This document shows, in pieces, positions 18,039-64,000 of a stretch of 64,000 nt of DNA. The notes beneath the pieces were generated by a model, which ran no database searches, had not been told where the DNA came from, and was given only the letters and a program-made list of their open reading frames with translations. The position numbers and the translations under genes are program-made. The DNA lies in NCBI GenBank assembly GCA_026874595.1, contig CM049306.1, forward strand, positions 27,023,519 to 27,087,518, in the 5' to 3' direction. The stretch is from Sipunculus nudus (Eukaryota > Annelida > Sipuncula > Golfingiida > Sipunculidae). Within the stretch, counting starts at the first letter, position 1. The number at the start of each line of letters is the position of its first letter.

Positions 18039-18104
18039 CACTTGTGATCAATAAACACACCAGGTTCTACCAGAAACTAACATGATTGTTGTCATTTTAT
18101 AGTA

Positions 18105-42027: not shown

Positions 42028-42721
42028 TACTGGGTCATTCCATGTCAAATAGACAAGAGGTGGTTGCACCACCATCTCAGATTGTCTTCATTTTTTGTCA
42101 TTATTGAGAAGGGTGAAAATGATAGGGGAACCCAAAGGTACAGCTTTATATGTCCAATGGTTTGTTGTTTATGAGCCTCTGAAGTGGTAGGGATCCCATT
42201 AATTAAATTCCGCCTGTAATTTTTTATAGATTTCCAACAATGATAACTCAAAAAGTATCCAATATAACCCCACCAAATTCTCAGAATCTTCAAAATGTAT
42301 ATAGTTTTACAGTATAAATAAATTATATAGCCCCTCTGAGAACAAGTAAAAATTTTACAATTAATTGAAAAGTGTGATAAATCACACGAGGTTCTCAAAT
42401 CAAACAACTTTATTTGACATTAGACATGGCATTATTTTGTCATTATAGGTCAACTTCTACTTGTTTGGTGTCTGACAATTTTTTCCAGACCATAAGAGAC
42501 ACCATACATGCTGTTGAAGTGCTTGAGAGCCTGTCAAACATGCGACAATTACAAAAAATCATAATTTTTAAGCCAGATTTTCTCCATGTGTACAAGGTTG
42601 TACCTTTTTGAAACTTTTTTATGATTAACACTTATACAAGGTCTTTTATAAAAACATAGACTGAATTTTGGTTCAGGCTTTATTCCTATCCTACACCATG
42701 TAATAACAGAGGTGTTTTTTA

Positions 42722-44259
42722 TGCCCCCACCACAAAGTGGCCGGGGCATATAGTTTTACCCATGTCCGTCATTCCGTCCTTCCGTCATTCCGAAATCAAA
42801 CAGTTGTACGGACATTTTTTCGCAATGCCGGCAGATATTGGCCTGATTTTTGGTGTGTGGGCAGATATAGACCAGTTACAGATCGAGTTCGCGTTTCGTC
42901 CGGGTTGACTAACTTTTGACCGTTTTACGGCTCCTAAACTTAGAAAATTTCATGAAAAATAGAAATTTCATGACAAATACACATGTACGGACTTTTTTTT
43001 CGCAATGCCTGCAGGTATTGGCCTGATTTGTGGTGTGTAGGCAGATAATGACCAGTTACAGATCGAGTTCGCGTTTCATCCCGGTTGACCTACTTTTGAA
43101 CGTTTTACGCCTCCTTAACTTAGAAAATTTCATGAAAAATAGAAATATTCATGACATTTACACATGAACGGACTTTTTTCGCAATGCCTGCAGATATTGG
43201 CCTGATTTTTGGTGTGTGGGCAGATATAGACCAGTTACAGATCGAGTTCGCGTTTCATCCCGGTTGACCTACTTTTGACCTTTTAACAGCTCCTGAACAT
43301 AGAAAGTTTCATGAAAAATATGAAATTTCATGACAAATACACATGTATGGACTTTTTTTCGCAAAGCCTGCAGATATTGGCCTGATTTTTGGTGTGTGGG
43401 CAGATATTGACCAGTTACAGATTGAGTTCGCGTTTCGTCCCAGTTGACCTTCTTTTGATTGTTTTACGGCTCCTGAACATAGAAAATTTCATGTAAAATA
43501 TAAATTTTCATGACAAATACACTTGTACAGACTTTTCTTCGCAATACCTGCAGATATTGGCCTGATTTTTGGTGTGTGGGCAGATAATGACCAGTTACAG
43601 ATCGAGTTCATGTTTTGTCCCAGTTGATCTACTTTTGATCGTTTGACAGTGCTCTAACATAGAAAATTTCATAAAAAAGTGCACATGTATGGACTTTTTA
43701 TCGCAGTGCCTGCAGATGGGGGCCTGATTTTTGGTGTGTAGGCAGATAATGACCAGTTACAGATCGAGTTCTTGTTTTCTCCCAGTTGACCTACTTTTGA
43801 CCATTTGACTGCTCCTGAACATAGAAAGTTTCATGAAAAATAGAAATTTTCATAACAAATGCATATGTACTGACTTTTTTTCCTCAATGCCTGCAGATAC
43901 CACCCTGATTTTTTATGTGTGGGCAGATAATGACAGTTACAGATCGAGTTCGCGTTTTGTCCCGGTTGACCTATTTTTGATTGTTTTACGGCTCCTAAAC
44001 ATAGAAAATTTCATGAAAGACAGAAATTTTTATGGAAAATGCACATGTATGGACTTTTTTTCACAATGCCTGCATATACTGGCATGATTTTTGGTGTGTT
44101 GCTTGATAATGACCCTTTACAGATCGAGTTTGCATTTTGCCCTTGTTGACCTACTTTTGTCCATACGACACCTCCTGAACTTAAAAAAATTTTCAAAATT
44201 TTACAAATGTTTCTAATTTGCCCCAGGCGGGGGCATTCGTGTCGTTCCGACACATCTAG
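42722..44259 (+). mobile_element. ATGCCCCC-family element with 180-bp tandem core
   Basis: The 5' end A|TGCCCCCACCACAAAGTGGC CGGGGCATATAG is a hairpin, followed by a GTCCGTCATTCCGTCC tract. The 3' end has GGGGGCAT, the inverted 5' arm, then the palindrome GTGTCGTTCCGACAC, AT and CTAG|T. The core holds eight units of about 180 bases, each with TCGCA(A/G)TGCCTGCAGATATT, TGATTTTTGGTGTG and ACAGATCGAGTTCGCGTTT. Unit landmarks are at 42807, 42986, 43166, 43346, 43525, 43687, 43867 and 44046. Helitron-like by its CTAG and hairpin; no gene. Confidence 0.8.
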
Positions 44260-45824
44260 TCTCATTTTCATCATGGAAATAGCTTGGAATTTCTTCTTCA
44301 GTTATTATGATTGCAGCTGTAAAGGCACAGGTATTACCATGGGTCCTTTCAGGACAACTATCTAACAACTGCAATTAGTTTTTAAAGACTGGTCATACAT
44401 TAATTATTATATGTACATTTACTTTTTTCATTTTACTATTTTTATCTAAAATATCGACCATGATAAAAATCATAAAATTTATGTGAAATGTAAAACATAA
44501 GTCAGACTTCTTTCCCCCTATCAAAATGTGATACAAGGTTTCTTACTGAAATTAAATGAATATATACATTGGTACCTGGCAGTAATCTCCAGTGATTGTC
44601 ATCAAAAGGTCCTGGTTGCAATAGGTGCTGTAGATCAAGTACAGGTGTATCAAAATTTAGATTTCTTGAACTCATGAGCATACTTAAACTGCAAATTTGT
44701 TGTATTATTAGAGATGATCACCAGAACATGTGCTCATGGTTATTATTGCACTGATTAAAATATACTGAAAGGGCTGATGATCTGATAGCATGGTATAGTT
44801 GAAAATCACTCAGAGTTCACTCTTAAAAATTTCAAACATGTCTTTATTTTTTTTTTATATTTATCCTAAATTTAATTTATTTACTCTTGAATTATAGATG
44901 TTGCCAAAACCTCAATTTTTGTGGAATCCAGTGCTTCTTAGCTTAACTTCGTGGTGGTGCTTGTGTAGTACCTAAAAGTTGTTTGTAGTTGCTTTTCAGA
45001 CAGTAAATATGTCATCTTTGTGCAAGATAGTGAATCTTCTTGAGACAGAAAATGACAAGACAGTACACACAGTGTATGAAAAGTTGTCAGGACAGCTAGC
45101 CTTGGCATAATTGACTGTGATACATTAACCCCATTTTGATTTAGGCATAAAAATCTCAGGCAAAAAAAGTTTATATATTTCACAGTTTACATATCTCCTG
45201 ATTATGATCTTGGTCAATGCTTGAGGTAAAAGTTTATGTAAATACATAACATGCATGTATATATATTTAGTTATAGCCTGTTATGCAGTTGTCCAGGAAC
45301 GAATACTTGTGATGCCAGTGCTATTAAAGAAAACAAACATGTGAACTGAACAGGGAATTCCAAGTGTGTTCCATGCTGAAAAAACGAAAACAAATACACC
45401 TCTATTAGTACATGTCATAATATATATTTGAATCTTGGACCATACTGCATTCTGTGTTTATTCTTAAGGCTTTATGTCAGTTTTCATTCTATAAAAGTTT
45501 CAGAAAGATACAACCATGTACACTTAGAGAAAATTTAGGCTGAATAAAGCAAAGTTTTGGAATCAGTTAATTCTCTAAAACAATTCAACAGCATACATGA
45601 TATCTCACACATTCTAAAAATTGTCAAACACCAGGCATGTATTTAAACATGGATTTGGTGTCAAGACACTGTTTTAGCTACTGAAACAGAAACCAAGTTT
45701 TGATTTATAGATTTGACTGTGATTTACTGACTACAGAAAAATCGCTTGAAATACCTACACTTATATATTTAGTACTCCATTTTCAAGATATTGACAAGCT
45801 GAACCAAGATTGTCATATGCATTT
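44260..45824. other. TIR-element interior, no gene
   Basis: AT-rich sequence between the two nested elements. The minus-strand frame at 44938-45183 has no known domain. Confidence 0.4.
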
Positions 45825-46986
45825 TTAGCTCAGCTGACTATTAGTCATCTGAGCTATAGTCGTGGTCCATTGTCCGTCATCCGTCCGTCTGTCCGTCCGT
45901 CCGTAGATGTGGCACGTTTGGAAACCGTAAGACCTAGGAATCCAAAATTCGGCATTATGTTAGATGTCCCCAAGATCTCCTACCAAGCCGAAACTTGGGT
46001 CTTTGCGACTTCAGTCTTTTGAGAAATTAAGGAAAAACCTCAATTTTTTATTAAAAACCTATTTTCACACTTCAGGACTGCCTAATATCACAACCACTCA
46101 TCTGTTTTTCCTTATATTTACTATAAATATTCTTGTATATAGTTCCTATGTACATGCCAGAAATTAGGTGTGTATTATATAATTTAAAAAAGTTATGGGC
46201 ACAAACATAATGCATTTTGTAAAAAATCAGGAAAGATATTTGATCATTTAACACAAAACTTGTTAAAGCTTAGGACTTTTTTACAGTAATATAACTTTAA
46301 TTAATCAAAATTAAATTCTATACCCAATATTAGATCAAAATCTTTTAAATTTTTTAAAATATTAGCAAAAATAAAAAATTGGTAACTTAAATTTTGCCCA
46401 ACTTTGACCATGGCACGTTTTTTTCTTGTAAGTACAGTTGATTTAATTTTCACAGCCAGTTTACATATGGATTTAATCTGATGAATTTTGAAATTTGATA
46501 GTTTAAGCTTAAAAAATAGTCTAGCTATTGGAGTTATTTAGAGGCCTTGATGTATTTGTATTTTCTAGCATCATGACCCCACTTTTGTTTACTACAACTT
46601 TGCCTTGTAATCCAAAAATTGGCATAATGTTAGATGTCCCTAAGATCTCCTTCCAAGCCAAAAACTGGGTCTCTGTGACTTTTTTTCTTTGAGAAATTAA
46701 GGAAAACCTCAATTTTTTATTAAAATCATTTTGACACTTCAGGAATGCCTAATATCAAAACCACTGATCAGAATTTGATCATAGTAAATATGCATATTCT
46801 TCCATATGTTTCCTATGTAAATTCCAAAAATTAGGTCAGTATTGTGTAATTTGTTGAACTTATGGGCCCAAACATAATGCAACTTGAAAGGACTTCCGGT
46901 TGACATGTTGAGGTGATAGGACGGGAGTGTGAGGTCTCCGAAAAGAATTACATAAAAAAGTGAAAAGACCGAGATAATATAGTGTT

Positions 46987-47982
46987 ATGGATACCAGACA
47001 GAAAAGAAAACAAAAAGAGCAACCAGAGGGCACGTTGGATAAGTACGTCATTTGTGAAACAGAGACCAGTGGCGCAGGTAAAACCCGCAAGGCAAGTGTC
47101 ACTGAGAAAACATGGCCTCCCGTGCAGACCACAAGGAGTGAGCACCTGAAGGTGAGCGTGAACATGACATTGAGAAAAAATTGAATGACTTTTAAAGATG
47201 CGCTGTTGGGGGCAATAGACACTCTCAGAAATTCTTTGACAACTGAAATAGAAGTAAAGTTCAAAGTGTTAAAAGAAGATACAAACGCGAATGTGACAAA
47301 AATAGTAAAACTTGAACAAAGCCTTGAATTCTCCCAGAAAGAACTTGAAATATATAAAACGCACACAGATGAATTGATAGAGGAAAACAAAAAATTGAAA
47401 GAGGAGTTGGCAAGTGTCAAGACATTTCAGAGTAAAATGGAGAAAGATTTTGAAGAAACCAAAAGACAATTGCTTGATAAAATGAATGAAGCAGAGCGGT
47501 ATTCAAGAGAATTTAATGTTAGGGTTGCCGGGCTAACTGAAACTAATGGAGAAAACTGCGTGAAACTGGTGGCTCAAATAATATCTGAAAAAGAACTGAT
47601 GGAAAGAAAATCGGTGGAGGAAATAGAGAACCTGATTGAGAATGCCCATCGGACAGGCAAAGGACTACCAAATAAGCAGAGGCAAATAATTGCTAAATTT
47701 GTGAAAAGAACTGATAGGAATACAATAGTAAAGAATGCAAAGAGTCAGCTGAATAGAGTAGAAGGCGCCAAAATTAAAATGTTCGAAGACCTTACAAAAG
47801 CAGATTATGAGCTAAAGAAAAGAGCGCAACCGCAGATTGAGGCTGCTTATAATGACCAGAAGAAAGCCGTGTTCCGCCGAGGGAAACTAATAATAAATGG
47901 ACACCTGGTGGCAATACAAGGCAAAGCTGGAGCGCGACTCGAAATGATAAGCCAGCGGAACGTGGCCCAAGCCCTGGATTGA
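46987..47982 (+). pseudogene. LINE ORF1 (L1-type RNA-binding protein), one stop
   Basis: The ATG at 46987 opens a frame that runs to 47982, broken once by TGA at 47182-47184; translation could restart at the next codon, ATG at 47185. After a basic N-terminus come a coiled coil (about 47270-47500: QSLEFSQKELEIYK.., ELIEENKKLKEELASVK) and an RRM-like domain with NVRVAGL, ENAHRTGK and IIAKFVKRTDRNTIVKNAK. A C-terminal domain follows with KMFEDLTKADYELKKRAQP and FRRGKLIING. This order is that of L1 ORF1p, a nucleic-acid chaperone that trimerises through the coiled coil. Confidence 0.85.
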
Positions 47983-48581
47983 AGAATCGCCTAGAGACTG
48001 AATGGCCAGGGACCACACGCATGAATGCCCATGACTGCAGCTCTACCTGAGACGATTTTGGGTGCAATGTTTTTGGACTTTGTTTCTTTATTTTCAGAGT
48101 CGTAAAATTGACTCGGTTAAATATTTAATAATAAAGACTGAAATAATAGTTACATTAACAGTTTATTTTTCAGATCAATAAGAAGACTTGAAAGTGCTGT
48201 AAAATAGTTATTTAAAATGTGTTTCATCTTGTTCTGTTTAATCATGTTTAATATCGGTGATCAGATCGAGGCCTCGCTGGTAATGTTTAACCGGATAACA
48301 GTTTTTGCCGTTTACTGTGTGGATAGTGACCGAGCCTCTATTGTCGCTCATTACCAAGTGGTACGTGAGTTGTGAAAGACTCAGGGGTAGGTACTGTCAT
48401 ATTTGTGTGCTTTGTAGTAATATGTCTGTAGTTGTTATCTATGTTGATGTACATGATACATCATTTAGTATGTCATTTATTAATTCACTTTTTGGTATAT
48501 CCACCATCACCTTTTATACGAAGGTTCGACCATACCTTACATTATTGGTAAAAAATAATATGTCACAAAGATATATTCCTT

Positions 48582-51500
48582 GAATTTACAGTAGCGACCC
48601 TCAATACCAGAGAGATAAATAATACAAAGAAAAGGAGGACAGTGTTTACATGGATGAGGCGACAAAAGGCGAATGTTATATTTCTACAAAAGACGTATAG
48701 TAGTAAATCATGCGAAGTACAATGGCGTAATGAGTGGGGAGGTCATATACTTTATAACCATGGAAGTAATCATAGTAGAGGTGTTGCTGTTTTATTCAAA
48801 CCGGGGTTAGATTATCAGATTATAAGAATTAATATTGATGAAGAAGGAAGAATACTCATAGTAGAAACATTAATTCAAGATCAAGTTATATATTTCTGTA
48901 ATTTATATGCCCCAAATCAAGAAAGTAAACAAATTGCTTTCTTTAAAAAGGTAAAAAATAAGCTTTTAGAATTTGGAGTGGATGAAGATAAAAATCTTAT
49001 TATAGGGGGTGATTTTAATATTGTATTTTGTAATATTGATAAGGATGGAGTAAGAGAACAAAGTAAAAGTAGTAGATATAGTGAACGATCTGTCAAGCTG
49101 CTTTAATTTAATTGATATATGGAGAACTCAGAATGAAACAACAAAAATGTTTACATGGCATCAAAAAGAACCTGAAATTCATTGTAGATTAGACATGTAT
49201 TTCATTTCTAGTGCTTTACAAGATTTTGTAAATAATTGTGACATTATCCCAGCTGCAATGACAGATCACTCTGGTGTAGTTTTGAAATTTGAAGATACGA
49301 AGCAGACCGCAAGAGGGAATGGGTACTGGAAATTTAACAATGATTTATTAAATGACCCTCAATATGTTGGTATGATAGAAAATAAAATTGATGATTGGTG
49401 TAAAGAATTGGCAAGTACAAATTGCAGGGGAAAATGGGAGTTATTAAAATATTTTATTAGAAAAGAAACCATAGTTTACTCAAAGAAAATTAAGAAGAAA
49501 ATAAATGATCATTATGATCAATTAGCTTCAAGACTAAAATATTTAGAGAGAGAAAACACAGATACTGAAGAATACTTCAAGCTAAAAGAAACACTGAACT
49601 GTTTAGATCTTAAAAAGGCTGAAGGGACAATTATTAGAGCCAGAGTGAGATGGAGAGAATGGGGAGAGAGGAGTTCAAGGTATTTTTATCAGCTAGAGAA
49701 AAGAAATGCAGTAAAGAAACATATTAGAAAACTTAAATCACAGGACACTGAAGACACGATATCTGATAATAAAGAAATACTATTAACAGTAAAATTATTT
49801 TATGAAAATTTGTACAAAAGTAGATATCGAAAAAATGTTTTATCTGAAGGTCAAATAGTTTTTGATAATCCAAGTCTGGTCAAACTTACAGATGAACAAA
49901 AAATAATATGTGAAGGTCTACTTACTCTAGATGAGTGTGAAAAGGTAGTTAATTCCATGAAAAATAATAAATCCCCTGGAAATGATGGTTTATCCATAGA
50001 ATTTTATAAATGTTTTTGGAAAAGGGTGGGGCCCTTGTTAGTTGATTCATTCAACGATTCATATCATGTAGGGGAAATGTCACCATCTCAAAGACAGTCA
50101 ATTATAACACTCCTAGAAAAAAAAGGGAAAGACAGATTACTTATTAAAAACTGGCGCCCAATTTCTTTATTGAATAATGATTATAAAATTGCATCCAAAA
50201 CAATAGCAGAAAGAATAAAAAAAGATCTGGCACATGTTATACATATTAACCAGCATGGCTTCGTAAAAGGGAGATATATAGGAGAAGCAGTCAGGACAGT
50301 ACTTGATACTATGGAATATTTAAAGATGAGTAGACACCCAGGATTATAAGTATACGTTGATTTTGAAAAAGCTTATGATTCATTAGAATGGGAATTTATG
50401 TTAAATGTATTAAAACAAATTAATTTTGGAAATGATTTGATATCCTGGGTAAAAACATTTTACAATAATATCGCTTCATGTGTAACAAATAATGGATACA
50501 GTTCAGGCTATTTCCAAGTTGAGAGAGGTGTTCGACAAGGGGATCCCCTCTGACCATACTTATTTATCTTAGCAATAGAACCCTTAGCAGAAGCAATAAG
50601 ACAAAATAATCAGATACAGGGAATTAAGGTAAATAAAGAAATAGAGCTAAAGTGTTTATTGTATGCAGATGATTTGACAGCTATAATGAAAGATGGTGAA
50701 TCTGCAGACAAATTATTAAGTCTGATTGAAGCCTTTTCCAGAGTTTCAGGCCTTAAAATTAACCAAGAAAAATCAGAAGCCATGTGGCTTGGTTCAAAGG
50801 CAAATTGTAAGGAACAACCAATAAATGTTAACTGGAAGACATCTGTCAAAATATTAGGAATTAATATCTCACATGATCAAAATAAAATGATAGATCAGAA
50901 TATTCAACCAAAACTAAAAGATGCTAAAGAAACACTTAATGCTTGGAGAAGTAGAAATTTAACTTTAAATGGAAGGATTATGTTAGCAAAGTCATTGGGT
51001 TATTCTAAGTTTCAATATGTAGCATCAGTAGTAGATATACCTGAAAATTATAAAAGGGAAGTTGACCGTTTGCTGTTTAAATTTATATGGAAAGGGAAAA
51101 AAGAGGACGGATAAAAAGAAGGATTTTAATGGATGAATATGAACAAGGTGGACAGAAAATGGTTAATGTAAAATGTATGATTGAGGCCCAAAGGATAAAT
51201 TGGGTGAAAAGATATTTATATGGAAATAATATCCCATGGAAATCCCTAGTGGATTCACTGTGTAATCATTATGGAGGGTTTTCACTCCTTTTACAGTGTA
51301 ACTACTCTAGAGCAATATTACATAAACTACCATCCTTTATAGAGAAATTTTTAAAATATGGAAAACTGTTAGAGAAGAAAAGGATCAAGAAATTATTTGG
51401 AATAATTGCAACATAACTTTTAATGGGAAACCTTTGTTTATTGAAAATATGAAAAATGCAGGTTTACTTTTTATATCAGATTTGGTAGAACAAGGTAAAA

Positions 51501-52279
51501 TAATACCTTTTCTAGAGTGGAGGAATAGAGGAGTTAAAGTGAAATATTACATGTCTTGGAGAAGTATAATTAGTCAGGTATGGAAAGCATTGAGGTTTAT
51601 AAATTCTGCTGAATGTTCTAACAATGATGAATGGATTTTGAAATACACCAAGACAAAGCTCTCAGAGGTTACCTCAAAACAATTGTATAAAGTTTTATTA
51701 GATAACATCCCAAGGGACATGGGTAAAGGTGAAAAAAAGCATGAAGAAATTAATGATATACAAGACGGTCAGTGGACAGCTATATATAAATTACCCTGGA
51801 TAACTACCAACGATAAAAAACTCCAAGATTTCCAATACAAGATAATCCATTGGATATTGGTTTTGAATGATTGGCTTTATAAATGTAAATTAATTGAAAA
51901 TGAAAAATGCACATTCTGTGCCAATGAGAGAGAGACATTAGAACCTTTCATATATGAGAGTGAAATAAGCAGACAATTTTGGGAAGAATTAGAAAATCAT
52001 TGCATGTTTTCAACAGGGAAAGATTGGAGTCGAGATGTAAAAAAAATATTATTTGGTATTATAAGAGATATAAATTTAAATAAGATCATAAATATCATTA
52101 TTTTGCTTGGTAAGAAATACTTATATGAGTGCAGGTATTATGGAACAAAACCAAAGGTCACAATATTTATGCATAAAGTTAAACAGTATCATGACATAGA
52201 GATAGAGATGGCGAAGAAAGGTAATAAATTGACTGAGACTAGAGAATTGTGGTCATGTCTAAACTTATCACAAAGTTGA
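48582..52279 (+). pseudogene. LINE ORF2 (AP endonuclease + reverse transcriptase), broken
   Basis: Endonuclease motifs present: NNTKKRRT start region, GGDFN, CRLDMYFIS and TDHSG. The catalytic glutamate motif reads QKTYS where the family has QETxS, so this Glu is Lys. RT motifs present: NKSPGNDGLSIEFYK, NWRPISLLNNDYKI, QHGFVKGR, DFEKAYDSLEW, QGDPL and YADDL. Breaks: a frame change near 49.08-49.10 kb, TAA at 50347-50349, TGA just after QGDPL (about 50551), and frame changes near 51.11 and 51.37-51.41 kb. The C-terminal zinc-knuckle region reads CTFCANERETLEPF.YES and appears to lack its usual His and last Cys. Not functional as it stands. Confidence 0.9.
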
Positions 52280-52917
52280 TATTTAGGTGACAATATTTCG
52301 CTCGTGTTGTATTTTTGTTCCTTTTGTGCTATATGTTGTGCTTTTGTGTATTGAAATTGTTATGGTATTGTGTTATATGTAAATATGTAAAAAAAAAAAA
52401 AAAAAAATAATGCAACTTGAAAAAAAATAAGGAAATATATTAACTCGCTCAACATAATAATTCTTGAAGCTAGAGACTTTTTTTCAGGGATATAACTTCA
52501 TTTGATCAAGATTCCATTGTACACCGAAAATTAGATCTGAATTTTGCAATTTTTTCAAGTTATTAGCATAAATATAAAATCAGTACCTTAAATTTGCCCA
52601 ACTTTGGCCATGGCAAATGTATTTTCCAGTATGTACTGTGGATTTTATTTTCACAGCATGTACACACAAGGATTTAATCTGTTAAAATCTTAAATTTTAA
52701 AATAAAGGCTAAAAAATTAGGCTTATTATTGACTTTTTTGTGGAGGCTCTTGTAGTATTCCCTTACATTGTCAAGCAGCCCACTTGGGGCCACTGTAGGT
52801 CATTCAGTATAGCTCTCTGTGCCCAGGGTGTTGTTATGAAATCCCATCACTCCTGCAAGCCCTCTCTCTTTGTTGAACTTATCCAGGCTGTCTGCAGTTA
52901 ATACCACAGGGAGTCTT

Positions 52918-52945
52918 CTCTCTCTCTCTCTCTCCCCCCCCCCCC
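52918..52945 (+). repeat. (TC)n-(C)n tract
   Basis: About eight TC pairs followed by a run of C, inside copy B. Confidence 0.8.
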
Positions 52946-54288
52946 ACCACACCCAATTCTGTTGACAGACCTGCACTATAAACAAGATGAATCTTATAAT
53001 TTCACATTTTTCAGCAACCAGCAGTAACAACAGAGACTCCTCCCCTACCGACCCCTTCAACACAGAACTCATAAACAAGATGAATCTTTTAATTATAATG
53101 TTAAATTAATTCTTTATGTTGAGACTTGGACAATTTAAATTTTTTTTAAAGATAAAAATGTTCAGGAATTGAATTCTAACATTAAAATGTTATAAAATAT
53201 TATGATCTAACATAAGTGCTAATTGACTAGATTTAAGAAGATATAAATAGTTTGTAGCATTTGTATCTCTTAAAGTTGGCAGGGCCTAGGTGTGAATAAT
53301 ACTATTAAACCTAGTTTTAAAATCAGAAATATTGGTCAAACTTTGTGGGAATAATTTTTAAATCATATGGCCATATATTTAACTATTGAAAACTTAATTT
53401 CTTCACACATTCTTTGTTTATGAAATGTAACTTTCATATAACATTTACCGTTGGCCCATTTTTCCCTTGGTGCATCATAAAATGGTTTCAGGCCACAAGT
53501 TTTTTACACATTGCATATGTTTTAGCTTATGTCCATTATTCTGTAATCTACAGAGATTAATTTTAACAGCTCCATTTTCTCTTTGCTTTTGAAATGCTAT
53601 TATACATAAACCAAAAGAAATAAGAATATTTTGCATTTGCTAATATTTTCCAAAATTCAGCTGAGCGACGTGACCCATGGGTCCCCTTGTTTGGAAGCAG
53701 AAATGTAGATTATTTCTCATATCAGATATGAAGTTGATACAACCTCGTACACATCTCATAATTTTAGGTTAAAAATGGTCAATTTTGGTTGACAGCTGGT
53801 ATTTCAGAGCTTATTATAGGATTATGAACAATACCTCAAGCACCAACTTTATACAGATGTTTGCTTAAGGTCTTATTCTCTTCCACTGAGCCAGTTATGA
53901 TGTCACTGCTATCCATTTTGGTTGTTATTTTATTCAATCAAACCCCGCTTGATAATTTTTTTTACAGTTTTAAATGCTCTTGTATATGAAAAGGATTTGT
54001 CTTACACTCTGTTTTTGTCATATGACATTTTGCATTTTATGCATATTTAAAGTCCTGAAAATCTCAGAGGGATACCTTTAATGGTTCTGAAGATATATTG
54101 ATTTAAAAAATAAAAAAATTACAGGCAGAAATTAAAGAAAGGTGACCCTTCTAACTTTGTAGGCCTATAAAAATTACAGGAATGAGTCCTGAAAGCCAAT
54201 ATCTTGGGATTCTCCGTCAAATGTATCAAGGAATGCATAAAAACCTTTTTTCTTGATTTTTGTCTATTTGACATGGAATGACCCTACT

Positions 54289-55592
54289 GTATAATATTCT
54301 CTGTAAAATCTGCGGCTTAAGTTAGAAAACTGGTGCACTTAAACCTTCAAATCCTCACTGAACTTACTAGGTACACTGCGGCTTTAGATGGATGATTCCC
54401 TTGAAGTCTTCATCATGGTATGGACATATCTATGCAATAAGTGGGAGGTGACAGTCATGCTCAAGAGGATATTGACCTAAAGGCTGATTCGAGTGAACTA
54501 TATTCTTGATCTGATGTATAAAAGGAACTGATAAATTCTGTCATGTCTAGAACATAAGGTTAATATAACTGATTTGATTTTTGCAAAAATAATACAAGGC
54601 TTAATAAACCCTGTTGCAATTAAATGTTCACACGTTGGCAGATCTTGGCAGGCCTTCTTTCCTTATCTGTATTAGATATTTGTTTAATTTTTTTTTTAAT
54701 TATCAAAATTTCTGTCAACTTTTCACCAATTTATTGTCTTTGAATTTATATTATTACAGATCAGCCAAGGATATCAGAACACCTGAATGGCTCCAGCTGG
54801 CATGGTTTCATGCACTAAAAGTCCAGTTGAGACTTTAAAGGGGGGTTTTCCAGATCTCGTTTTCTGAGGGCATTGCGGATGGGGTACAAGAAAGTTTGGA
54901 TGCTGCTTGTAAAGCATGAGGCTTAAGATAGAGAATTTATGGTAGATCAATTCTTCTGACCTGAAAATATGTCAGGCAAAAGTAAATAAACCAATGGCTT
55001 ACACAACAGATAGAACATGCATGCCTATTTGTGGGAATTTGTGTTACATATTTTTTCTGTTTCATTCATAGTGTTTAAATAAAATTTGAATGTGACAACA
55101 TTAAACATATTTGATCATGTAATATTAGATGTATTTAAATATTTTTTTTCTCTGCATGATTGGTTGTAACAGTCTGAAATGCCCATGTCAGTATTGTCTT
55201 CTTGAGTTTATTTTTGCCTGTACATATCATAGGACTGTTTAATGATTAATAATGAGGAACATTACCAAAGTAAATGAAGATGAAAAATAAATTCCAAAAT
55301 GCCTGGGTAAAATTATGTTTATTTGCACAAGCAGTTACATAAACAGTACAGTATTTATCACTAGATGTTGCCCCAAAGTTAAATTTCATGTTTGACCTAA
55401 TTCACACCCTTGCCCCTAGAAGTTCTCCATTATCATTGGATCTTTTGGTCACTGACATTGCCCTTGTCCTAGATGATGGAACCAGATAAAATTCCCTTTC
55501 CACCAAAACCCAGTCTTTAGCAGATTTACCAGATCACACCTTTTGCTTCTATTTTCTTGTCACCTTTACCAAACATAGTCATCTCTTTTTTA
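54289..55592. other. ZRANB1 intron, no feature
   Basis: AT-rich and apparently single-copy. The plus-strand frame at 54614-54838 spans an ATTACAG acceptor-like site but is not TRABID sequence. Confidence 0.4.
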
Positions 55593-56165
55593 TTAGCTCA
55601 GCTGAATGTAAGTCAACTGAGCTGTAGTGATCAGTCAGTGTCTGTCGTCAGTCTCTCTGTCTGTCTGTCTGTTAGACTGGCACATTTTGACACACTGGGA
55701 CTTAGAAACCTGTAACTGAATATCCAAGGAGGTCAATAAAAATCTACTTGGAAACCTATATTAGGTACCTGTGACCTATATGCTCCAACTATTTGGCTTG
55801 TAAGTTCCCCCCCGCCCCCCTAGAATAATTAAAATTTGATATAAAACCAAGTATCTTGATAATTAATGCATGGATTGCCCTGAATATTGACCATGACAAG
55901 GTTTATCAGTTCCCGAAAACTGATGGCGCCACTTGCATTTTTTCTCATTTTTACAATTTGTTGCTTTTGAGACCATGAAATGACAGCAGTCGTGTCAGTT
56001 TTTTACTGTAGTTTCTAGTGTCCCAAAACCTGATGTGTTTATTGATTATGACTGGTTTCTTCAGTTCCTGAAGACTGGTGGTGCCACAGGTATTTTTTTC
56101 TTTTTTTTTTAATGTTTTTATTCCTTTATTTGAGACTGCCAAATTATATTGATATATCAGATTTG
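55593..56165 (+). mobile_element. AGCTCAGCTGA-family 5' fragment (337-bp subfamily)
   Basis: Starts TTAGCTCAGCTGAATGTAAG with hairpin partner TCAACTGAGCTGTAGTGATC, then a (GTCT)n tract. Two diverged core units follow, with GATGGCGCCACTTGCA near 55922 and GGTGGTGCCACAGGTA near 56074, each after TCAGTTCC(T/C)GAA(G/A)ACTG. No 3' palindrome or CTTGTTT end is found, so it is truncated or ends within the next element. Confidence 0.6.
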
Positions 56166-56199
56166 CAAATGTGGTTTCATCTAGTGTCCTGAATACTTG

Positions 56200-56640
56200 T
56201 GTGTCATTAGGGGATGCCCTATAGTAATCACCTTGTCCATCCGTCCGTCTGTTCATCTGTTCCTCTTTCTGTATGTCTGTCAAATTTGTTTCCTGATGAT
56301 AACTCCAGTTTAGATTGACATATCAATTTCAAACTTGAATTATATATGGCACACCTCTTAAGCAAGAACTGTATTGATTTTCAGGTCATGAGGTCAAAGG
56401 TCAAGGTCACAGGACCCACTTTTAGAAAGATTGTGGATGCATTTTAAGCCAAACTTTTCATCCCAAACCTTCAATCTAGCAAATATAGGTGACCTGCAAA
56501 TAGAAGATCAACCTGATTGATTTTAGGGTCATGAGGTCAAAGGTCAAGGTCACAGGGGTCATCTGTCCAAATATTTGTTTCCAGCTGATAACTGCCTATT
56601 GGATTGAAATATTAGTTTCCATCTAGTCTAATATTTGACC
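56200..56640 (+). mobile_element. GGTCAAAGGTCA-family 5' portion
   Basis: Begins near TAGGGGATGCCCTATAGTAA, a short palindrome followed by CACCTTGTCCATCCGTCCGTC. Core units read GATAACTCCAGTTTAGATTG, GGTCATGAGGTCAAAGGTCA and AGGTCACAGG, the inverse of the 16-17 kb array. Two AGGTCAAAGGTCAAGGTCA clusters lie near 56392 and 56533. This supplies the 5' end that the 16-kb copy lacks in readable form. Confidence 0.65.
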
Positions 56641-56958
56641 CATCAATAAAGTAAAAACCCTTTTCAGGCTTTGGTCGTCCTTAAAAAGTCATGATTTTTT
56701 AGATTTGAAAAATCAGTAATAAGAAGTCTTGATGTTTTAGGAAATTCTCAGAAGTCATGAAAAAGTCATGAATTTCTTTTCCTTACTGTCTGAAAATGTT
56801 TTGTGTCAACTTTAAATATTATATTTATCAAAGATTTAAAGGCACATGAAAACCACCTTATTGAGACGACACCTGGGCATTTCATCACTTATTTTGCTGT
56901 TCTATCTATCTGGGCTGTTAACCCGTCAGTGCCATCATCCAATTCTTACAAATACTTT
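56641..56958. other. Spacer
   Basis: No gene or repeat recognised. It contains AAGTCATGA-type short words (56.69-56.78 kb). Confidence 0.3.
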
Positions 56959-57328
56959 TTAGCCCTCAGCCCTTAGGCTGATGGGCTATTGTCGTCATCC
57001 AAGCTGTCCGTCCGTCCGTCCGGCGTCCGTTAACTTTTACATTGTGAGCGGGATATCTTGAAAAGGATTCACCGCCAGAATTTTATTTCCTTGGTAAAGA
57101 TGTATATCAACAATATCTCGGTCAAGTTCGAAGATGGGTGACCCTGACATATTTTTCTACATTTTTGAGCTGATTATAGAAAAACACTTAGATGCTTATT
57201 ACTCAGGAACCATTTGGTGGATTTTCACAAAACTTACTATGCTTCTTGGGACTGATAGTCTGTACCTGCTTCATAAGTTTGGTGGCCCACCTACAATTTC
57301 TGATTTTTGATGAATTTTTATCAGATTT
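56959..57328 (+). mobile_element. AGCCCTCAGCC-family element, 5' part
   Basis: The 5' hairpin AGCCCTCAGCCCTTAGGCTG ATGGGCT is followed by ATTGTCGTC and GTCCGTCCGTCCGTCCGGCGTCC. The core has GGGATATCTTGAAAAGGATT and ACTCAGGAACCATTTGGTGG. It is interrupted at 57329 by the next element, and its 3' end is not found before 64 kb. Same architecture as the other families, with a different sequence. Confidence 0.6.
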
Positions 57329-58699
57329 TTAGCTCAGCTGACTGAAAGTCATCTGAGCTATAGGGATCACCTTTTGTCCGTCGTCCGTCCGGCCGTCCGG
57401 GCGTCTGTCCGTTAACAGGGCACAAATCGTAACCGCTTGAACTGGAATCTTCTTACTTGACATCCTGGGAGGTCCATGAAAAATCTCCTTGGAAACCAGA
57501 AATTAGGTCTCTGTTACCCATATCCTTCGAGCTATGGGGCCCCAAAGTACCCCCCAGAAAAGTCCAAAATTTCATACAAAAACTTCAATATCTCATTTAC
57601 TACTTGACTGATGGTCATGATTTTTGGCATACATATTGATCATGAGAGGTTCCATCAGTTCCTGAAGACTGGTGGCGCCACCTGTATTTTTCGATTTTTT
57701 ACGAATTTTTTTCTCTATTTTTGAGACCTTTAAAAATGTGAACATCTGTTAACAAGGCACAAATCGTAACGACTGGACTTAGAATCTTCATTCTCGACAC
57801 ACTGAGAGACCTATGAAAAGTCTCCATGAAAACCAGAAATTAGGTCTCTGTTACCCATATCCTTCCAGCTATGGGGCCCCAAACTACCCCCCAGAAAAGT
57901 CAAAAATTTCATACGAAAACTTCAATATCTCATTAAATACTTGACTGATGGTCATGATTTTTGTCAAACATATTGATCATGAGATGTTCCATCACTTCCT
58001 GCAGACTGGTGGCGCCACCTGTATCGTTCAATTTTTTACGAATTTTTTTCTCTATTTTTGAGACCTTTCAAAATGTAAACATCTGTTAACAAGGCACAAA
58101 TCGTAAAGACTGGACCTAGAATCTTCATTCTTGACACACTGAGAGACCTATGAAAAGTCTCCATGGAAACCAGAAATTAGGTCTCTGTTACCCATATTCT
58201 TCGAGCTATAGAGCCCCAAAGTACCCCCAAGAAAAGTTAAAAATTTCATACAAAAACTTCAGTATCTCATTAACTACTTGAATGATGGTCATGATTTGTG
58301 GCATAACTATTGATCATGAGATGTGTCATCTGTTCCAGCAGACTGGTGGCGCCACCTGTATCGTTCAATTTTTTACGATTTTTTCCTCTATTTTTGAGAC
58401 CTTTAAGGATGCTGTCATCTGTTAGCATGGCACAAATCGTAACAACTGGACCTAGAATCTTCTCTCTTGACATGCTGAGAGGCCCATGAAAAGTCTCCTT
58501 AAAAACTTGAAATTAGGTCTCTGTTACCCATAACCTCTGAGCTATGGGGCTCCGAAGTACAGCTCAGATTAATGGAAAATTTGATATAAAAGCTGAAGTA
58601 TCTGAACAACAAATGCAGGGATCACCATAATTGTTTGCATGGATTTTGATCATGGAGTGTGTCATCAGTTTCTGCAGCCTGGGTGCGCCACCTCTATTT
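57329..58699 (+). mobile_element. AGCTCAGCTGA-family element C with 337-bp tandem core
   Basis: 5' hairpin TTAGCTCAGCTGACTGAAAG..TCATCTGAGCTATAG, then GTCCGTCGTCCGTCCGGCC. Core units of 337 bases have GGTGGCGCCACC at 57671, 58008 and 58345, and the variant GGGTGCGCCACC at 58681. Each unit also has GGCACAAATCGTAA, TTAGGTCTCTGTTACCCATA and a CCCC(C/A)AGAAAAG phrase. Copy D1 is inserted in the fourth unit. The 3' end is not in view. Confidence 0.8.
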
Positions 58700-60609
58700 T
58701 TAGCTCAGCTGACTATAAGTCATCTGAGCTATAGTCTTGGTCCATTGTCCGTCGTCCGTCCGTCTGTCCGTCCGTCCGTAGATGTGGCACGTTTCGAAAC
58801 CGTAAGACCTAGGAATCCAAAATTCGGCATAATGTTAGATGTCCCCAAGATCTCCTACCAAGCCGAAAACTGGGTGTTTGCAACTTCGTTCCTTTGAGAA
58901 ATTAAGGAAAAACCTCAATTTTTTATTAAAAACCTATTTTCACACTTCAGGACTGCCTAATATCAAAATCACTCATCTGTTTTACCTCATATTTACCATA
59001 AATATTCCTCTATATAGTTCCTATGTACATGCCAGAAATTATGTCTGTATTATTTAATTTTAAAAAGTTATGGGCCCAAACATAATGCATTTTGTAAAAA
59101 ATCAGAAAAGATATTTGATCACTTAACACAAAAAATGTTAATGCTATGGACCTTTTTTCCAGTTATATAACTTTAATTAATCAAAATTAAATTGTATACC
59201 CAAAATTAGATGAAAATCTTTTAAATTTTTTAAAATATTAATAAAAATAAAAAATTGGTACCTTAAATTTTGCCCAACTTTGACCATGGCACGTTTTTTT
59301 CCTGTAAGTACTGTGGATTTAATTTTCTCAGCATGTTTTTGTTAGCATTTCAACTGTTAACACCAAAAATTTGAAACCAGTTGATCAAAAACTGTAGATT
59401 TTAATCAAGTTTTCAAGCACCATGTAACATATTGTTTACATCAAGCTAGTGTTATGCAGTTTGCAAGAGCTCAGCTCCCCAGCTTCAGCTCTAAGTTCCT
59501 TAAATTCGGCATACAGTTAGATGTCTCCAAAATGCCCTACCATGCCAAGAATTTGGTCACTAGGACATTCGAGATATTAATGTAAACTTCATTTTTCCAT
59601 TAAAAACCCATTGTTACACTTCAAGACTGCCTAATATCAAAACCACTGATCTGACTTTAATCATAAATAATATACATATTTTTCATTCTCTATGCACATG
59701 CCAGAATGATGTCAGTATTGTGTAATTGTTTTAAGTTATGGGCCCAAACATAATGCACTTTGTAAAAAATCAAGAAATATATTTACTCCCTTAACAAGAG
59801 CATTGCTGAAGCTAGAGATTTTTTTGTCAGGGATGTAACATTATTTAATCAAGATTCAATTGAATACCCAAAATTAGTTCTGAATTTTTCAAATTTTATT
59901 TAGTATAAATATAAAATTAGTACCCTTAAATTTTGCCCAACTGTGACCATGGCACGTTTGTTTCCCGTGAGCACTGTTGATATAAATTTCATATCATGTA
60001 CACATAAGCATTTCAGCTTTTTAGTTTAGAAAGCTGAAAGAAATTGGCCAAAAATTGTAGCTTTTATTAATGTTTTTTATGAGACCCTGTCAGACTTTGG
60101 CTCTCTCCAGCCCCTCTTGAGTCACTTGTATGTTGACCTTGTTGACCTTTCATCAAATTATGCACGCTTGAGGCGAGGCATACATGGAATCCAGGCAGCT
60201 TATGGCAAGCCACAGTTGATCCAGGTGTCCAACCCAACTCATCTAGTAGTTTTAACCAAGGAAATAACAAAAAACAATAAATTAATAAATTTTTATTTGG
60301 TTTTTAATAACAAATTAAAGAAAAATAGAAAAGGAATTTGTTAATAACAGGAAATTAACTTGCAGTTACTGATGATATAAGAATCTTGTATCGATGGGTA
60401 GAATGTCACATATTCCAAATAACACCATGCAGTCACCTATGGCATTTTTCAGTTCAATTTTAATGATAAAGAAGTAAATCATATTATTCATTACTAATCA
60501 TTAGGGATCATATGAAGGAAATTAGACAAAGATGCAGTTGATAATATTAATCTAGATTCCTGCTGTGTCTAGTGTGTACATTGATGTATAATTAATCCAA
60601 AATGAATTT

Positions 60610-61513
60610 TTAGCTCAGCTGACTATAAGTCATCTGAGCTATAGTCGTGGTCCATTGTCCGTCGTCCGTCCGTCTGTCCGTCCGTCCGTCCGTCCGTCCG
60701 TCCGTCCGTAGATGTGGCACGTTTTGAAACCGTAAGACCTAGGAATCCAAAATTCAGCATAATGTTAGATGTCCCCAAGATCTCCTACCAAGCCGAAAAC
60801 TGGGTCTTTGCGACTTCATTCCTTTGTGAAATTAAGGAAAAACCTCAATTTTTTATTAAAAACCTATTTTCGCACTTCAGGACTGCCTAATATCAAAACC
60901 ACTCATCTGTTTTTTCCTCATATTTACCATAAATATTCCTCTATATAGTTTATATGTACATGCCAGAAATTAAGTCTGTTAAGTATAAATTCTTTAAGTT
61001 ATGGGCCCAAACATAATGTACTTTGTAAAAAATCAGGAAAAATACTTACTCACTTAACATGAAAAATTTTGAAACTAGAGTCTATTTTCCCATGTATATA
61101 ACTATGTTTAATTAAGATTCAATTGTTTACCAAAAATTAGATCTTAATTTTGTAAATTTTTTAAGTTATTCGCATAATAATAAAATCAGTACCTTAAATT
61201 TTGCCCAACTTTGACCATGGCACGTTTTTTTTCTGTTAGTACCATTGATTTAATTTTCACAGCATGTAAACATAAATATTTAATTTGTTTAAATCTGAAA
61301 TTTGAAAATAAAAGCTTGAAAATTAGGCTAGTTATTGATTTTTTTCTTGAGGCTCTGTTGTAGTCATTTGCTTTGATTACAGATTACAGATGCAGGCTCC
61401 CACTCCAGGTCAATGGAAGTCAGCTGTGCTAGGGTTTCTGATTGGTTACAGTCACTGGGGGAGATCCCCTGCTGTGGCAGGTGTACAGTTATTCTCATAT
61501 CACCATCCCAATC

Positions 61514-61545
<32 letters not shown>

Positions 61546-62544
61546 CAAACCCAACCCACCAAGTGTTATGCAGTTATTGTTATTGTTTTCACTGTATCTC
61601 CTTCATTGTAATGCTGTTTCCACTCCGATATGCAAAAACTTTCCTTGAAAAGGTAATTCAAGGTGTAATCCAGAAGATGCAATGTTGTGTAATGTGGCAT
61701 TTTTAAAGAAATCAATTTTCTTTTAAATGATTTTAACAAATATAATTGAACCCATCGGTATACTTAAATTTATAAAATATGAAGCACATTATGGATAAAT
61801 AAAGACACATTTAAAAATTGTGAAATCTAAATCAGGTATTATTTTAAGATATTTATTGTTTTGCAGATTTAAAAGATATATTTTTGTGGTAAAAAATAAA
61901 TAAATATTTGTATGCATGATGTGGTGTTATCTGACAAGATTGAGATTTATGATGATGCAATTAAGAATTATGAATCAACTTTTATATTCGGATATATATG
62001 TTATATTGGAAATGTATAGAAATATAAACTTATAATAAAAAAAATTGATGTAATAAAAAAATGAGGATTTAATACAAACATTTGTTCATTATTTTCCTGC
62101 CTCAGCAGAATTTGAGATCAGGCTTTGTTTGCCCTTTTTTATGTTGTTAATTAGTTATATTTCAGCTGTATAAATTTCATTAAAAAAATACATTTATATT
62201 TATTAAAATATATTATACAAAAAATAGATTCAATTGAACAAATGTGTAAACTACTGAAATGTCAACAGTTAATCAAAAAGCCAACTAATGATCATGGTAA
62301 TATTACAGATCATTTGTTCACAAACTGCTCACATGCTTCAATTTCAACATTAGGAAACACATGGTTAGGTCACAAAATATTATTTGCAACAATTTCTTGC
62401 TCATCAATACAAACAAATCATATAAACCAATCATGGCCTTTATTGCCTCTTCCTCTTACACAGCATCTCCATTTGATATTATTTTAGATTTTTACCTTCA
62501 AGGTCAACTTCAGCTGAGCATAGTGACCCATAGGTCCCTTGTTT
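60610..62544 (+). mobile_element. AGCTCAGCTGA-family element D2, complete, nested in D1
   Basis: 5' end TTAGCTCAGCTGACTATAAG with hairpin partner and about twelve GTCC repeats (60659-60709). 3' end CAGCTGAGCATAGTGACCCA TAGGTCC, then CTTGTTT. Copy A shows the empty site AATGAATTTTTTACAG at 29160-29175; here the element stands between AATGAATTTT and ACAG. It is complete at 1.94 kb, with a C30 tract at 61515-61544 and no gene. Confidence 0.85.
61515..61544 (+). repeat. Poly(C) tract, 30 C
   Basis: Uninterrupted run of C inside D2. The length is likely to vary or be misread. The proline-rich frames over it are artefacts. Confidence 0.85.
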
Positions 62545-62697
62545 ACAGTTATTTTTTAATATAAATAAAAGCCATAAAACCAGGTACTTATGATCATTAT
62601 TTAAATGTGTGAATTTTGTATATTCTGGATTCTCAACATCATTGTTTGGTGAAAACTGAATAAATTCCAGACATGGTGCAAATACTTTGTAATTGTA

Positions 62698-64000
62698 TCC
62701 GCCAAAACAGAGTTTTGCGGATACTATGTTTTCAGCTGCACGCCGCCGCCGCCGCCGCCGCGTAGGTTTCCGGAGAACTCCTCCGTAACCGCTTGGCGGA
62801 ATTTTACGAAACCCGGGATTATGTTCGGGTCACATGTGAACTGCTGCGCCCCGATTTTGTTTTGACCTCTGACCTTTCCTCTGCGCTCTGCGTCCGTTTG
62901 TGCGTCTGTTTCCACACATAAACCCACATATCTCTGGAACCGTTTGACGGATCAGGAAAATTTTTTTTCACAAATGTAGCCCTTGGAGAGCTTTATAACA
63001 TACACAAAAAATGGTGGCGCCACCTGCAACCACTTTTGCACAGTGTCCATCTGTTCGTCTGCCTCGGGTTAAAATCACTCATATCTCTGCAGTGACTGGA
63101 CTAATTCACCTGAAATTTGGCATGCGTATACATCCTGGATAGCTTTTCTGATTTTATGACAGGTGGCGCCACCTACATTCACGTTTACGCTGCAGACATC
63201 CAAGCTCATATCTCGGGAACCGTTTGACCGATCAGGAAAATTTTTTTGCACAAATGTAGCCCTTGGAGAGCTTTATAACATACACAAAAAATGGTGGCGC
63301 CACCTGCAACCATGTTTGCACAGTGTCCATCTGTTCGTCTGCCTTGGGTTAAAATCACTCATATCTCTGCAGTGACTTGACTAATTCACCTGAAATTTGG
63401 CACGTGTATACATCCTGGATAGCTTTTCTGATTTTGTGACAGGTGGCGCCACCTACATTCACGTTTACGCTGCAGACATCCAAGCTCATATCTTGGGAAC
63501 CGTTTGACCGATCAGGAAAATTTTTTTGCATAAATGTAGCCCTTGGAAAGCTTTATAACATACACAAAAAATGGTGGCGCCACCTGCAACAATGTTTGCA
63601 CAGTGTCCAGTTGTTTGTCTGCCTTGGGTTAAAATCACTCATATCTCTGCAGTGACTTGACTAATTCACCTGAAATTCGGCATGCGTATACATCCTGGAT
63701 AGCTTTTCTGATTTTATGACAGGTGGCGCCACCTACATTCACGTTTACGCTGCAGACATCCAAGCTCATATCTGGGGAACCGTTTGACCGATCAGGAAAA
63801 TTTTTTTGCACAAATGTAGCCCTTGGAGAGCTTTATAACATACGCAAAACTGGTGGCGCCACCTACAGCCATTTTTGCACAGCTCCTGTCTGTTTGTCTG
63901 CCATGGGATAAAATCACTCATATCTCGGCAGTGGTTTGACATATCTGGCTAAAATTTTGCAGGTTTATACATCCCCGACAGCTCTCTTGATTTTATGACA
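62698..64000 (+). mobile_element. GGC-H Helitron-like element, 5' part, runs off the window
   Basis: 5' end AATTGTA|TCCGCCAAAACAGAG with hairpin partner GTTTTGCGGATAC, then a (CGC)n tract at 62741-62761 and GGAGAACTCCTCCGTAACCG. Copy A gives the empty site AATTGTA|TTTAAATAC at 29324/29325, so the element inserted between A and T. From about 62930 the core becomes a regular array. The CTAG end lies beyond the window. Confidence 0.8.
62930..64000 (+). repeat. 280-bp dimeric tandem array with GGTGGCGCCACC
   Basis: Exact GGTGGCGCCACC at 63013, 63162, 63293, 63442, 63573, 63722 and 63852: intervals 149, 131, 149, 131, 149, 130. Two half-units alternate, one ACAGGTGGCGCCACCTACATT and one AATGGTGGCGCCACCTGCAA, giving a 280-bp unit. 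Units are nearly identical, so this array expanded recently. Three plus-strand 62-70-residue frames spaced 280 bases apart are by-products. Confidence 0.9.

What the first reader, a model, noticed from the sequence alone, without database searches (positions are those of the whole stretch)
42722..62544. Five or six unrelated families share one terminal architecture
The common order is: 5' palindrome; TATAGT or similar; (GTCC)n; tandem core; one 5' arm repeated inverted; 3' palindrome; CTAG or CTTGTTT. Examples: AGCTCAGCTGA ... CAGCTGAGC, GACCCATGGGTC, CTTGTTT; ATGCCCC..GGGGCAT ... GGGGGCAT, GTGTCGTTCCGACAC, CTAG; TCCGCCAAAAC ... GGCGGATAC, GTAGTC..GACTAC, CTAG; GCGAACCTG ... CAGGTTCGC, AGGCCTGTAGGCCT, TGTT. 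AGCCCTCAGCC and TAGGGGATGCCCTA show the 5' half only. The sequences differ but the layout is kept, as if one replication machinery reads structure. Helentrons have related asymmetric inverted ends; the constant (GTCC)n and tandem core recall bivalve 'pearl' elements.
Basis: partly seen in the sequence, partly recalled or inferred. Interest (0 to 1): 0.75.

Follow-up and report, generated by a model that had tools for sequence, protein, structure and literature searches.

The report
Rolling-circle transposons in shared orientation domains
These repeats are several families of defective rolling-circle (Helentron-type) transposons that share one end layout, and along the chromosome examined different families point the same way over stretches of roughly 100 kb, as if the direction of DNA copying decided which strand they enter.

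Summary
The shared layout is largely real. Families A (AGCTCAGCTGA), B (ATGCCCC), C (TATCCGCC) and D (GCGAACCTG) each have a 5' arm repeated inverted near the 3' end, then a small 3' palindrome and CTTG or CTAG. Not constant: (GTCC)n is absent from C and D, D has no 5' hairpin, E and F show only 5' halves. This is the published layout of HINEs, non-autonomous Helentrons; one A copy has a paralogous empty site in the window (T tract, no duplication). The genome encodes Rep-helicase-endonuclease loci; I could not show that they share these ends.

The surprise is orientation. On contig C1 beyond 1.2 Mb, the nearest copy of another of families A, B, D, F within 50 kb points the same way in 177 of 200 cases (400 joint rotations: mean 99, maximum 127), decaying to chance beyond 500 kb. 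An LTR control gives 6 of 13, but is small and less clean by pair counts. In the first 1.2 Mb all 65 listed copies of five families are minus. I favour strand-specific insertion at replication forks, like IS608. Which fork strand is only suggested: 11 of 12 kept pieces within 200 kb of contig ends fit, but the prediction written beforehand gave 6 of 11.

The parts
45827..53692 (+). Family A element, interrupted by a LINE (about 46893-52410); 5' AGCTCAGCTGA..., 3' CAGCTGAGC, GACCCATGGGTC, CCTTG then T
60612..62544 (+). Family A element, both ends
27255..29861 (+). Family A element nested in a D element of the same orientation; a paralogous empty site is in the D copy at about 22040-22300 (minus)
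15948..18475 (-). Family A element, minus orientation; this copy ends in CTAG
55595..56207 (+). Family A 5' part (3' end not seen; right limit not determined)
57331..58698 (+). Family A 5' part with about 337-bp tandem core, directly after the F fragment; right limit not determined
58702..60100 (+). Family A 5' part; right limit approximate, not determined
42721..44259 (+). Family B element: 5' hairpin, GTCC-like run, about 180-bp tandem core (7.6 copies), GGGGGCAT arm, hairpin, CTAG
62696..64000 (+). Family C 5' end and about 280-bp tandem core, runs off the window
37918..38753 (+). Family C 5' end and core
32180..32829 (+). Family D element (diverged 5' end) holding a C 3' end (32596-32636) before its own 3' end
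2778..6384 (+). Family D element, both ends; C-like 3' end about 6.15-6.2 kb inside it
18627..22385 (-). Family D element, both ends, containing a C core and C 3' end
56208..56600 (+). Family E 5' half (TAGGGGATGCCCTA, TATAGT, GTCC run); right limit arbitrary
   Evidence: the piece folded cut the palindrome, so its hairpin was not tested
56961..57330 (+). Family F 5' half (AGCCCTCAGCC...GGCTGATGGGCT, GTCC run), ended by the A element at 57331

Best explanation
The families are HINEs: non-autonomous Helentron-type rolling-circle elements moved in trans by a Rep-helicase. Their 5' arm and hairpin, the inverted arm near the 3' end and the 3' palindrome mark start and end of the transferred strand (inferred from Helentrons). 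They insert into T tracts without target duplication (shown for one A copy). On C1 the strand they enter is set by the locus and is the same for families A, B, D and F (shown). The most likely cause is that the transposon strand joins single-stranded T-rich DNA on one particular side of passing replication forks, probably the lagging-strand template, so orientation records fork direction in the germ line (inferred).
For: Ends. Empty site. Helentron domain set. Orientation on C1 beyond 1.2 Mb, cross-family pairs of A, B, D, F pointing the same way: 51 of 54 under 10 kb, 59 of 63 at 10-30 kb, 160 of 212 at 30-100 kb, 207 of 312 at 100-200 kb, 451 of 765 at 200-500 kb, 585 of 1208 at 0.5-1 Mb. 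Of 366 listed copies, 200 have another family within 50 kb and 177 agree with the nearest (counted from each copy); neighbours 10-50 kb away, 137 of 160; 400 joint rotations mean 99.4, maximum 127. C1:0-1.2 Mb: all 65 listed copies of A, B, C, D, F minus. LTR control: 6 of 13 within 50 kb, 11 of 25 within 100 kb (Fisher p 0.0005 and 5e-5). Flanks of 20 A copies: one pair shares the whole flank; 9 of 9 flanks that match another element have its orientation. Contig ends within 200 kb: 11 of 12 kept pieces fit the lagging-template rule, 12 of 14 with the two dropped ones.
Against: The chromosome-end prediction, written before fetching, held in 6 of 11 informative pieces at 100 and 300 kb; at 300-600 kb 4 of 12 fit, with 0 of 4 right-end pieces at 600 kb. 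Rare-variant A copies 0.9-2 Mb from ends fit in 2 of 9 (100 of 137 places listed); C copies at C7:0.48 and C10:1.18 Mb disagree. Family C follows weakly (39 of 59 within 50 kb). The LTR control by pairs is less clean: 6 of 7 under 10 kb, 4 of 6 at 10-30 kb, 30 of 54 at 30-100 kb, 48 of 71 at 100-200 kb; under 30 kb it does not differ clearly (Fisher p 0.06) and at 100-200 kb not at all (p 0.89). The short 11-mer list has 3 plus against 68 minus copies in the first 843 kb of C1, and 2 more plus by 1.02 Mb. Concordance of 110 of 117 under 30 kb would need very polar forks. Only C1 was mapped densely. No replication data, no autonomous partner linked. Confidence lowered from 0.55 to 0.5 on rechecking the control.
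Confidence: 0.5

Rival explanations
1. Transcription, not replication, sets the strand: insertion into the exposed non-template strand of genes, or selection against one orientation in introns.
For: In the window the one gene exon identified (ZRANB1-like, plus strand, 36135-37487) lies among plus elements; gene-sized domains would give short-range concordance; the LTR control may share part of the pattern (48 of 71 pairs at 100-200 kb).
Against: A 1.2 Mb block with all 65 listed copies of five families minus and decay over 100-200 kb exceed usual gene lengths (general knowledge; no gene map was made); the nearest-neighbour LTR control does not follow the domains (6 of 13).
Confidence: 0.22
2. 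Regional strand composition: the elements need T tracts and point whichever way T tracts point.
For: Masked flanks of 20 A copies have 61 T runs against 22 A runs of 4 or more on the sense strand.
Against: In 24 end pieces turned by element orientation, masked DNA has 236 T runs to 188 A runs and near-zero skews; element sense strands also hold many A runs. This is too little for 9:1 orientation.
Confidence: 0.08
3. Segmental duplication, subtelomeric exchange or same-strand nesting makes clusters that merely look like domains.
For: Among 20 sampled A copies one pair (L080/L081) shares its whole flank at about 95%; 9 of 9 flanks that match another element have its orientation; some end pieces share long near-identical stretches or satellite.
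Against: Duplication cannot by itself make unrelated families agree; 137 of 160 agree when only neighbours 10-50 kb away are used; the other sampled flanks differ apart from element-derived stretches and one 48-bp match.
Confidence: 0.13
4. Ordinary HINEs with no special insertion rule; the orientation signal is an artefact of lists cut at 100 places on one contig.
For: Lists are cut at 100; the list is incomplete on the minus strand beyond 843 kb (copies are missing from it) and was not used for the statistics.
Against: Searches agree where they overlap; the lists used carry both strands to near their last place; rotation controls used the same lists.
Confidence: 0.05

Closest known systems
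HINEs / DINE-1 (non-autonomous Helentrons), PMC4067079 (passages)
   Same: Subterminal inverted repeats, 3' palindrome, central tandem repeats in some copies, T-rich TT insertion without target modification; a Helentron family with palindromic subTIRs is mentioned
   Different: No orientation domains in the passages seen; here partner Helentrons with the same ends were not demonstrated
Cg_HINE elements of Crassostrea gigas, PMC7492417 (passages)
   Same: Left and right modules, tandem core, TT insertion, no duplication, many families in one bivalve genome
   Different: The passage says only that they integrate in both orientations; no regional pattern in the passages seen
IS608 / IS200-IS605 single-strand transposons, as described in PMC5371812 (passages)
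   Same: Orientation recapitulates replication direction because insertion prefers the lagging-strand template
   Different: Bacterial, different transposase; here the strand assignment is inferred
Human LINE-1 orientation preference relative to replication, PMC10030826 (passages)
   Same: A eukaryotic element with a replication-related strand preference
   Different: Retrotransposon; recalled as a modest bias, whereas here neighbouring copies agree in about nine of ten cases

Membership tests
HINE (non-autonomous Helentron) | Subterminal inverted repeats, 5' arm near the terminus and 3' arm tens of nt inside | tested here: met
   A, B, C, D
HINE (non-autonomous Helentron) | Palindrome close to the 3' terminus | tested here: met
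   Present in B, C, D and two of four A copies, each only modestly beyond chance (17-65 of 1000 shuffles); weak in two A copies and one C copy
HINE (non-autonomous Helentron) | T-rich / T-T insertion, no target duplication | tested here: met
   Paralogous empty site for one A copy; 6 of 7 A 5' ends in the window directly follow TTTTT
HINE (non-autonomous Helentron) | Shared ends with an autonomous Helentron of the same genome | tested here: inconclusive
   Rep loci exist; ends not reached
Autonomous Helentron (C4 and C8 Rep loci) | Rep, Pif1-type helicase and endonuclease in one open frame | tested here: inconclusive
   Rep and OTU in the C8 piece, Pif1 2B and Exo_endo_phos in the C4 piece; the two halves come from two loci and the middle was not fetched; one search gives open frames of 2,229 and 2,250 aa around the Rep matches
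Canonical Helitron | 5'-TC ... CTRR-3' termini, A|T insertion, no terminal inverted repeats | tested here: not met
   Ends begin AGC/ATG/TAT/GCG with inverted arms; T-tract insertion for one A copy; a CTAG end does occur in B, C and one A copy
MITE (TIR DNA transposon) | Terminal inverted repeats at both extreme ends with target duplication | tested here: not met
   3' arm is internal, followed by palindrome and CTTG/CTAG; no duplication in the one empty site tested
Replication-oriented single-strand transposons (IS608-like behaviour) | Orientation follows fork direction, sense strand in lagging template | tested here: inconclusive
   Orientation domains shown on C1; fork direction only by contig ends, 11 of 12 kept pieces within 200 kb but 6 of 11 in the prediction written beforehand
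Bivalve 'pearl' elements | Sequence and module structure of published pearl elements | not tested
   Resemblance is recalled only

The most novel reading that the evidence does not exclude
Eukaryotic rolling-circle transposons of the Helentron type insert almost only into one strand of replication forks, so tens of thousands of old copies form a readable fossil map of germline replication direction in this animal.
Probability: 0.4. Interest if true: 0.9.

Novelty: new variant of a known kind. Interest (0 to 1): 0.71.

Why it matters
Where Helitron-type elements get single-stranded DNA is open; the Helraiser paper names IS608's dependence on lagging-strand replication, and negative supercoiling, as possible parallels for the cleavage step (PMC4778049, passages). 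A locus-determined insertion strand shared by families would tie them to replication forks in a eukaryote, and would turn HINE orientation into a cheap proxy for germline fork direction and origin spacing in species where replication has not been mapped. The test is direct: compare the orientation map with a fork-direction map.

Tried and rejected
Link to an autonomous element: two Rep loci (C4:36.17 Mb, C8:80.14 Mb) align with each other through nearly everything fetched, about 3 kb 5' of the open frame and nearly 8 kb 3' of it, much of the latter tandem repeats; no A-F ends were found in them. One 5' piece from each of five other Rep loci gave none either, except that a complete C element lies upstream of the C17 locus in the same orientation, a neighbour rather than a proven end. 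LINE RT pattern as control: only 142 copies, too sparse. The rare C pattern gave 16 copies. The list was not used for run statistics because it is incomplete on one strand. Chromosome-end test: 125 pieces examined, 26 called, 6 mixed or short (L005, L146, L126, L106, L040, L062), 93 without a library match, two of them all N. Called rows dropped before the 11 of 12 count: L008 and L023 (110-bp matches inside a tandem repeat; L023 fits, L008 does not). L110 (88 bp) was kept. Literature on orientation domains: searches showed nothing on Helitron orientation domains in the titles and abstract starts listed (20 of 52, 15 of 126, 15 of 15, 1 of 1, 15 of 101, 5 of 5 papers listed) nor in passages of PMC5148889, PMC5876387, PMC4778049, PMC5738225; only open-licence papers are held, and no paper was read whole. 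On rechecking I lowered two odds (best explanation 0.55 to 0.5, novel case 0.42 to 0.4) because the LTR control is less clean by pair counts.
Full report
Setting. The window is C1:27,023,519-27,087,518 of a 1.43 Gb genome in 153 contigs; C1-C17 are 61-111 Mb long and C18-C20 under 0.1 Mb.

Observation. I named six families by their 5' ends: A AGCTCAGCTGA, B ATGCCCC, C TATCCGCC, D GCGAACCTG, E TAGGGGATGCCCTA, F AGCCCTCAGCC. In A, B, C and D the 5' arm recurs inverted near the 3' end (9-10, 8, 12 and 9-11 nt; 0-15 of 1000 shuffles as long), then a palindrome and CTTG or CTAG. For C the two ends were taken from different window copies; a complete copy is seen upstream of a Rep locus on C17 (L095). 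5' hairpins are strong in the copies of A, B, C, F folded and absent in D. The folded piece of E was cut too short to test its palindrome. (GTCC)n is not universal: the C copy at 62.7 kb has a GCC run and D has CGTCGTG units. The 3' palindrome is individually weak in several copies. So the layout is real but looser than stated.

Abundance. Pattern matches on the two strands: A 38-mer 5,666 + 5,703, C 1,615 + 1,588, F 611 + 650, D 3' end 2,053 + 2,072, B 1,478 + 1,454; reversed controls 0 in each. The 11-mer AGCTCAGCTGA occurs 48,134 times against 97 for its reverse.

What they are. The layout matches published HINEs (PMC4067079 and PMC7492417, passages). One A copy (27255-29861) sits in the T tract of a D element; a D copy in the same window, in the opposite orientation, keeps the uninterrupted site, and the alignment shows no duplication beyond the T tract. 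In three D copies (3' ends near 6.38, 18.63 and 32.83 kb) a C-type 3' end lies roughly 150-200 bp before the D end, so these D elements are composites.

Machinery. Helitron_like_N has 143 matches in the genome (150 of 195 candidates scored), seven of them in open frames above 2,200 aa. A C8 piece carries DUF6570, OTU and Rep, and a C4 piece Pif1 2B and endonuclease domains, together the Helentron set, though not seen in one fetched frame.

Orientation domains. The lists give the first 100 places of each pattern, all on C1: A (126 places merged, to 11.2 Mb), B (100, to 30.0 Mb), C (100, to 30.5 Mb), D (100, to 17.2 Mb) and F (100, to 73.2 Mb). Over the whole genome each family is balanced between strands, yet in the first 1.2 Mb of C1 all 65 listed copies (35 A, 7 B, 5 C, 17 D, 1 F) are minus. 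The looser 11-mer list, complete on both strands only to 843 kb, has 68 minus and 3 plus there and 2 more plus by 1.02 Mb, so the block is not absolute. Beyond 1.2 Mb sign domains are shared: cross-family pairs of A, B, D, F agree in 51 of 54 (under 10 kb), 59 of 63 (10-30 kb), 160 of 212 (30-100 kb), 207 of 312 (100-200 kb), 451 of 765 (200-500 kb) and 585 of 1208 (0.5-1 Mb). Of 366 such copies, 200 have another family within 50 kb, and the nearest agrees in 177 (each copy counted as a start); rotating the signs of each family 400 times gives mean 99.4 and maximum 127; using only neighbours 10-50 kb away, 137 of 160. By region: 83 of 94 at 1.2-7.6 Mb, 82 of 94 at 7.6-17.5 Mb. Family C follows less well (39 of 59), for reasons I do not know.

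Control. An LTR element (2,470 matches; of 7 pairs closer than 10 kb, 4 are 5.98-6.11 kb apart) agrees with the nearest A, B, D or F copy within 50 kb in 6 of 13 and within 100 kb in 11 of 25, against 177 of 200 and 213 of 258 (Fisher p 0.0005 and 5e-5). By pairs the control is less clean: 6 of 7 under 10 kb, 4 of 6 at 10-30 kb, 30 of 54 at 30-100 kb and 48 of 71 at 100-200 kb; it differs from the families over 0-100 kb (40 of 67 against 270 of 329) but not clearly under 30 kb (p 0.06) and not at 100-200 kb. It is small, and specificity to Helentron-type elements is therefore likely rather than proven.

Independence. I compared the upstream flanks of 20 A copies (14 from the minus block, 6 from a plus block near 3.2-3.5 Mb). 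One pair (L080/L081) shares its whole flank; L066/L076 share an A-derived stretch and L068/L076 48 bp; the rest are unrelated. Nine flanks match another element (best match each), all nine in the same orientation. Masked DNA of 24 oriented end pieces has nearly symmetric composition, so regional T richness does not explain the sign, although DNA close to A copies is T-rich on the sense strand (61 against 22 runs).

Direction. If the sense strand enters the lagging-strand template, elements near a left chromosome end, where the fork must run outward, should be minus and near a right end plus. C1 left fits. At 200 kb, 8 of 8 kept pieces fit (9 of 10 with the two dropped tandem-repeat pieces). 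I then wrote the prediction down and sampled 60 further pieces: 6 of 11 called ones fit (3 of 4 at 100 kb, 3 of 7 at 300 kb). At 600 kb 1 of 5 fits. Split by depth after the fact, 11 of 12 within 200 kb and 4 of 12 at 300-600 kb fit. This agrees with terminal domains of a few hundred kb and with the correlation length on C1, but the split was not foreseen, and satellites and shared stretches near ends confuse the picture. Rare-variant A copies at 0.37-0.77 Mb fit in 3 of 3 and at 0.9-2 Mb in 2 of 9 (100 of 137 places listed, C1-C10); two C copies, at C7:0.48 and C10:1.18 Mb, do not fit.

Interpretation. Unrelated families agreeing at a locus means that the locus, not the family, sets the strand. 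Replication fork direction is the process known to do this for single-strand transposons in bacteria (IS608, as reviewed in PMC5371812), and its domains in animals have about this length (recalled). Transcription is the strongest rival and is not excluded. The claim shown is cross-family orientation domains on C1; the claim inferred is lagging-strand insertion.

Noticed in passing
46893-52410: A LINE with a poly-A tail inserted in the A element 45827-53692, flanked by a repeat of about 'ataatgcaacttgaaa' (read by eye).
   Followed up: no
33044-33691: Copy of an LTR-like element; among 100 listed places 4 of 7 close pairs are about 6 kb apart.
   Followed up: partly
36135-37487 (+): Exon of a ZRANB1/TRABID-like gene (ankyrin ubiquitin-binding domain and RanBP zinc finger; the gene name is recalled). 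A SLU7-like exon near 6.6 kb (+) is read by eye only; the ORF 6691-6918 gave no Pfam match.
   Followed up: partly
L007, L016 (left ends), L022, L024 (right ends): A satellite with about 375-bp period 200 kb from four contig ends, in one orientation relative to the chromosome end.
   Followed up: no
L008, L015, L023, L040, L045 against L092: The tandem array lying 3' of the C8 Helentron frame also occurs near several contig ends, in both orientations, which suggests a satellite derived from, or a target of, Helentrons.
   Followed up: partly
C1, family C list: Family C follows the orientation domains much less than A, B, D, F (39 of 59 within 50 kb); unexplained.
   Followed up: partly
2778-6384, 18627-22385, 32180-32829: Each of these three D elements carries a C-type 3' end shortly before its own 3' end, so D looks like a composite amplified as a unit.
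   Followed up: partly
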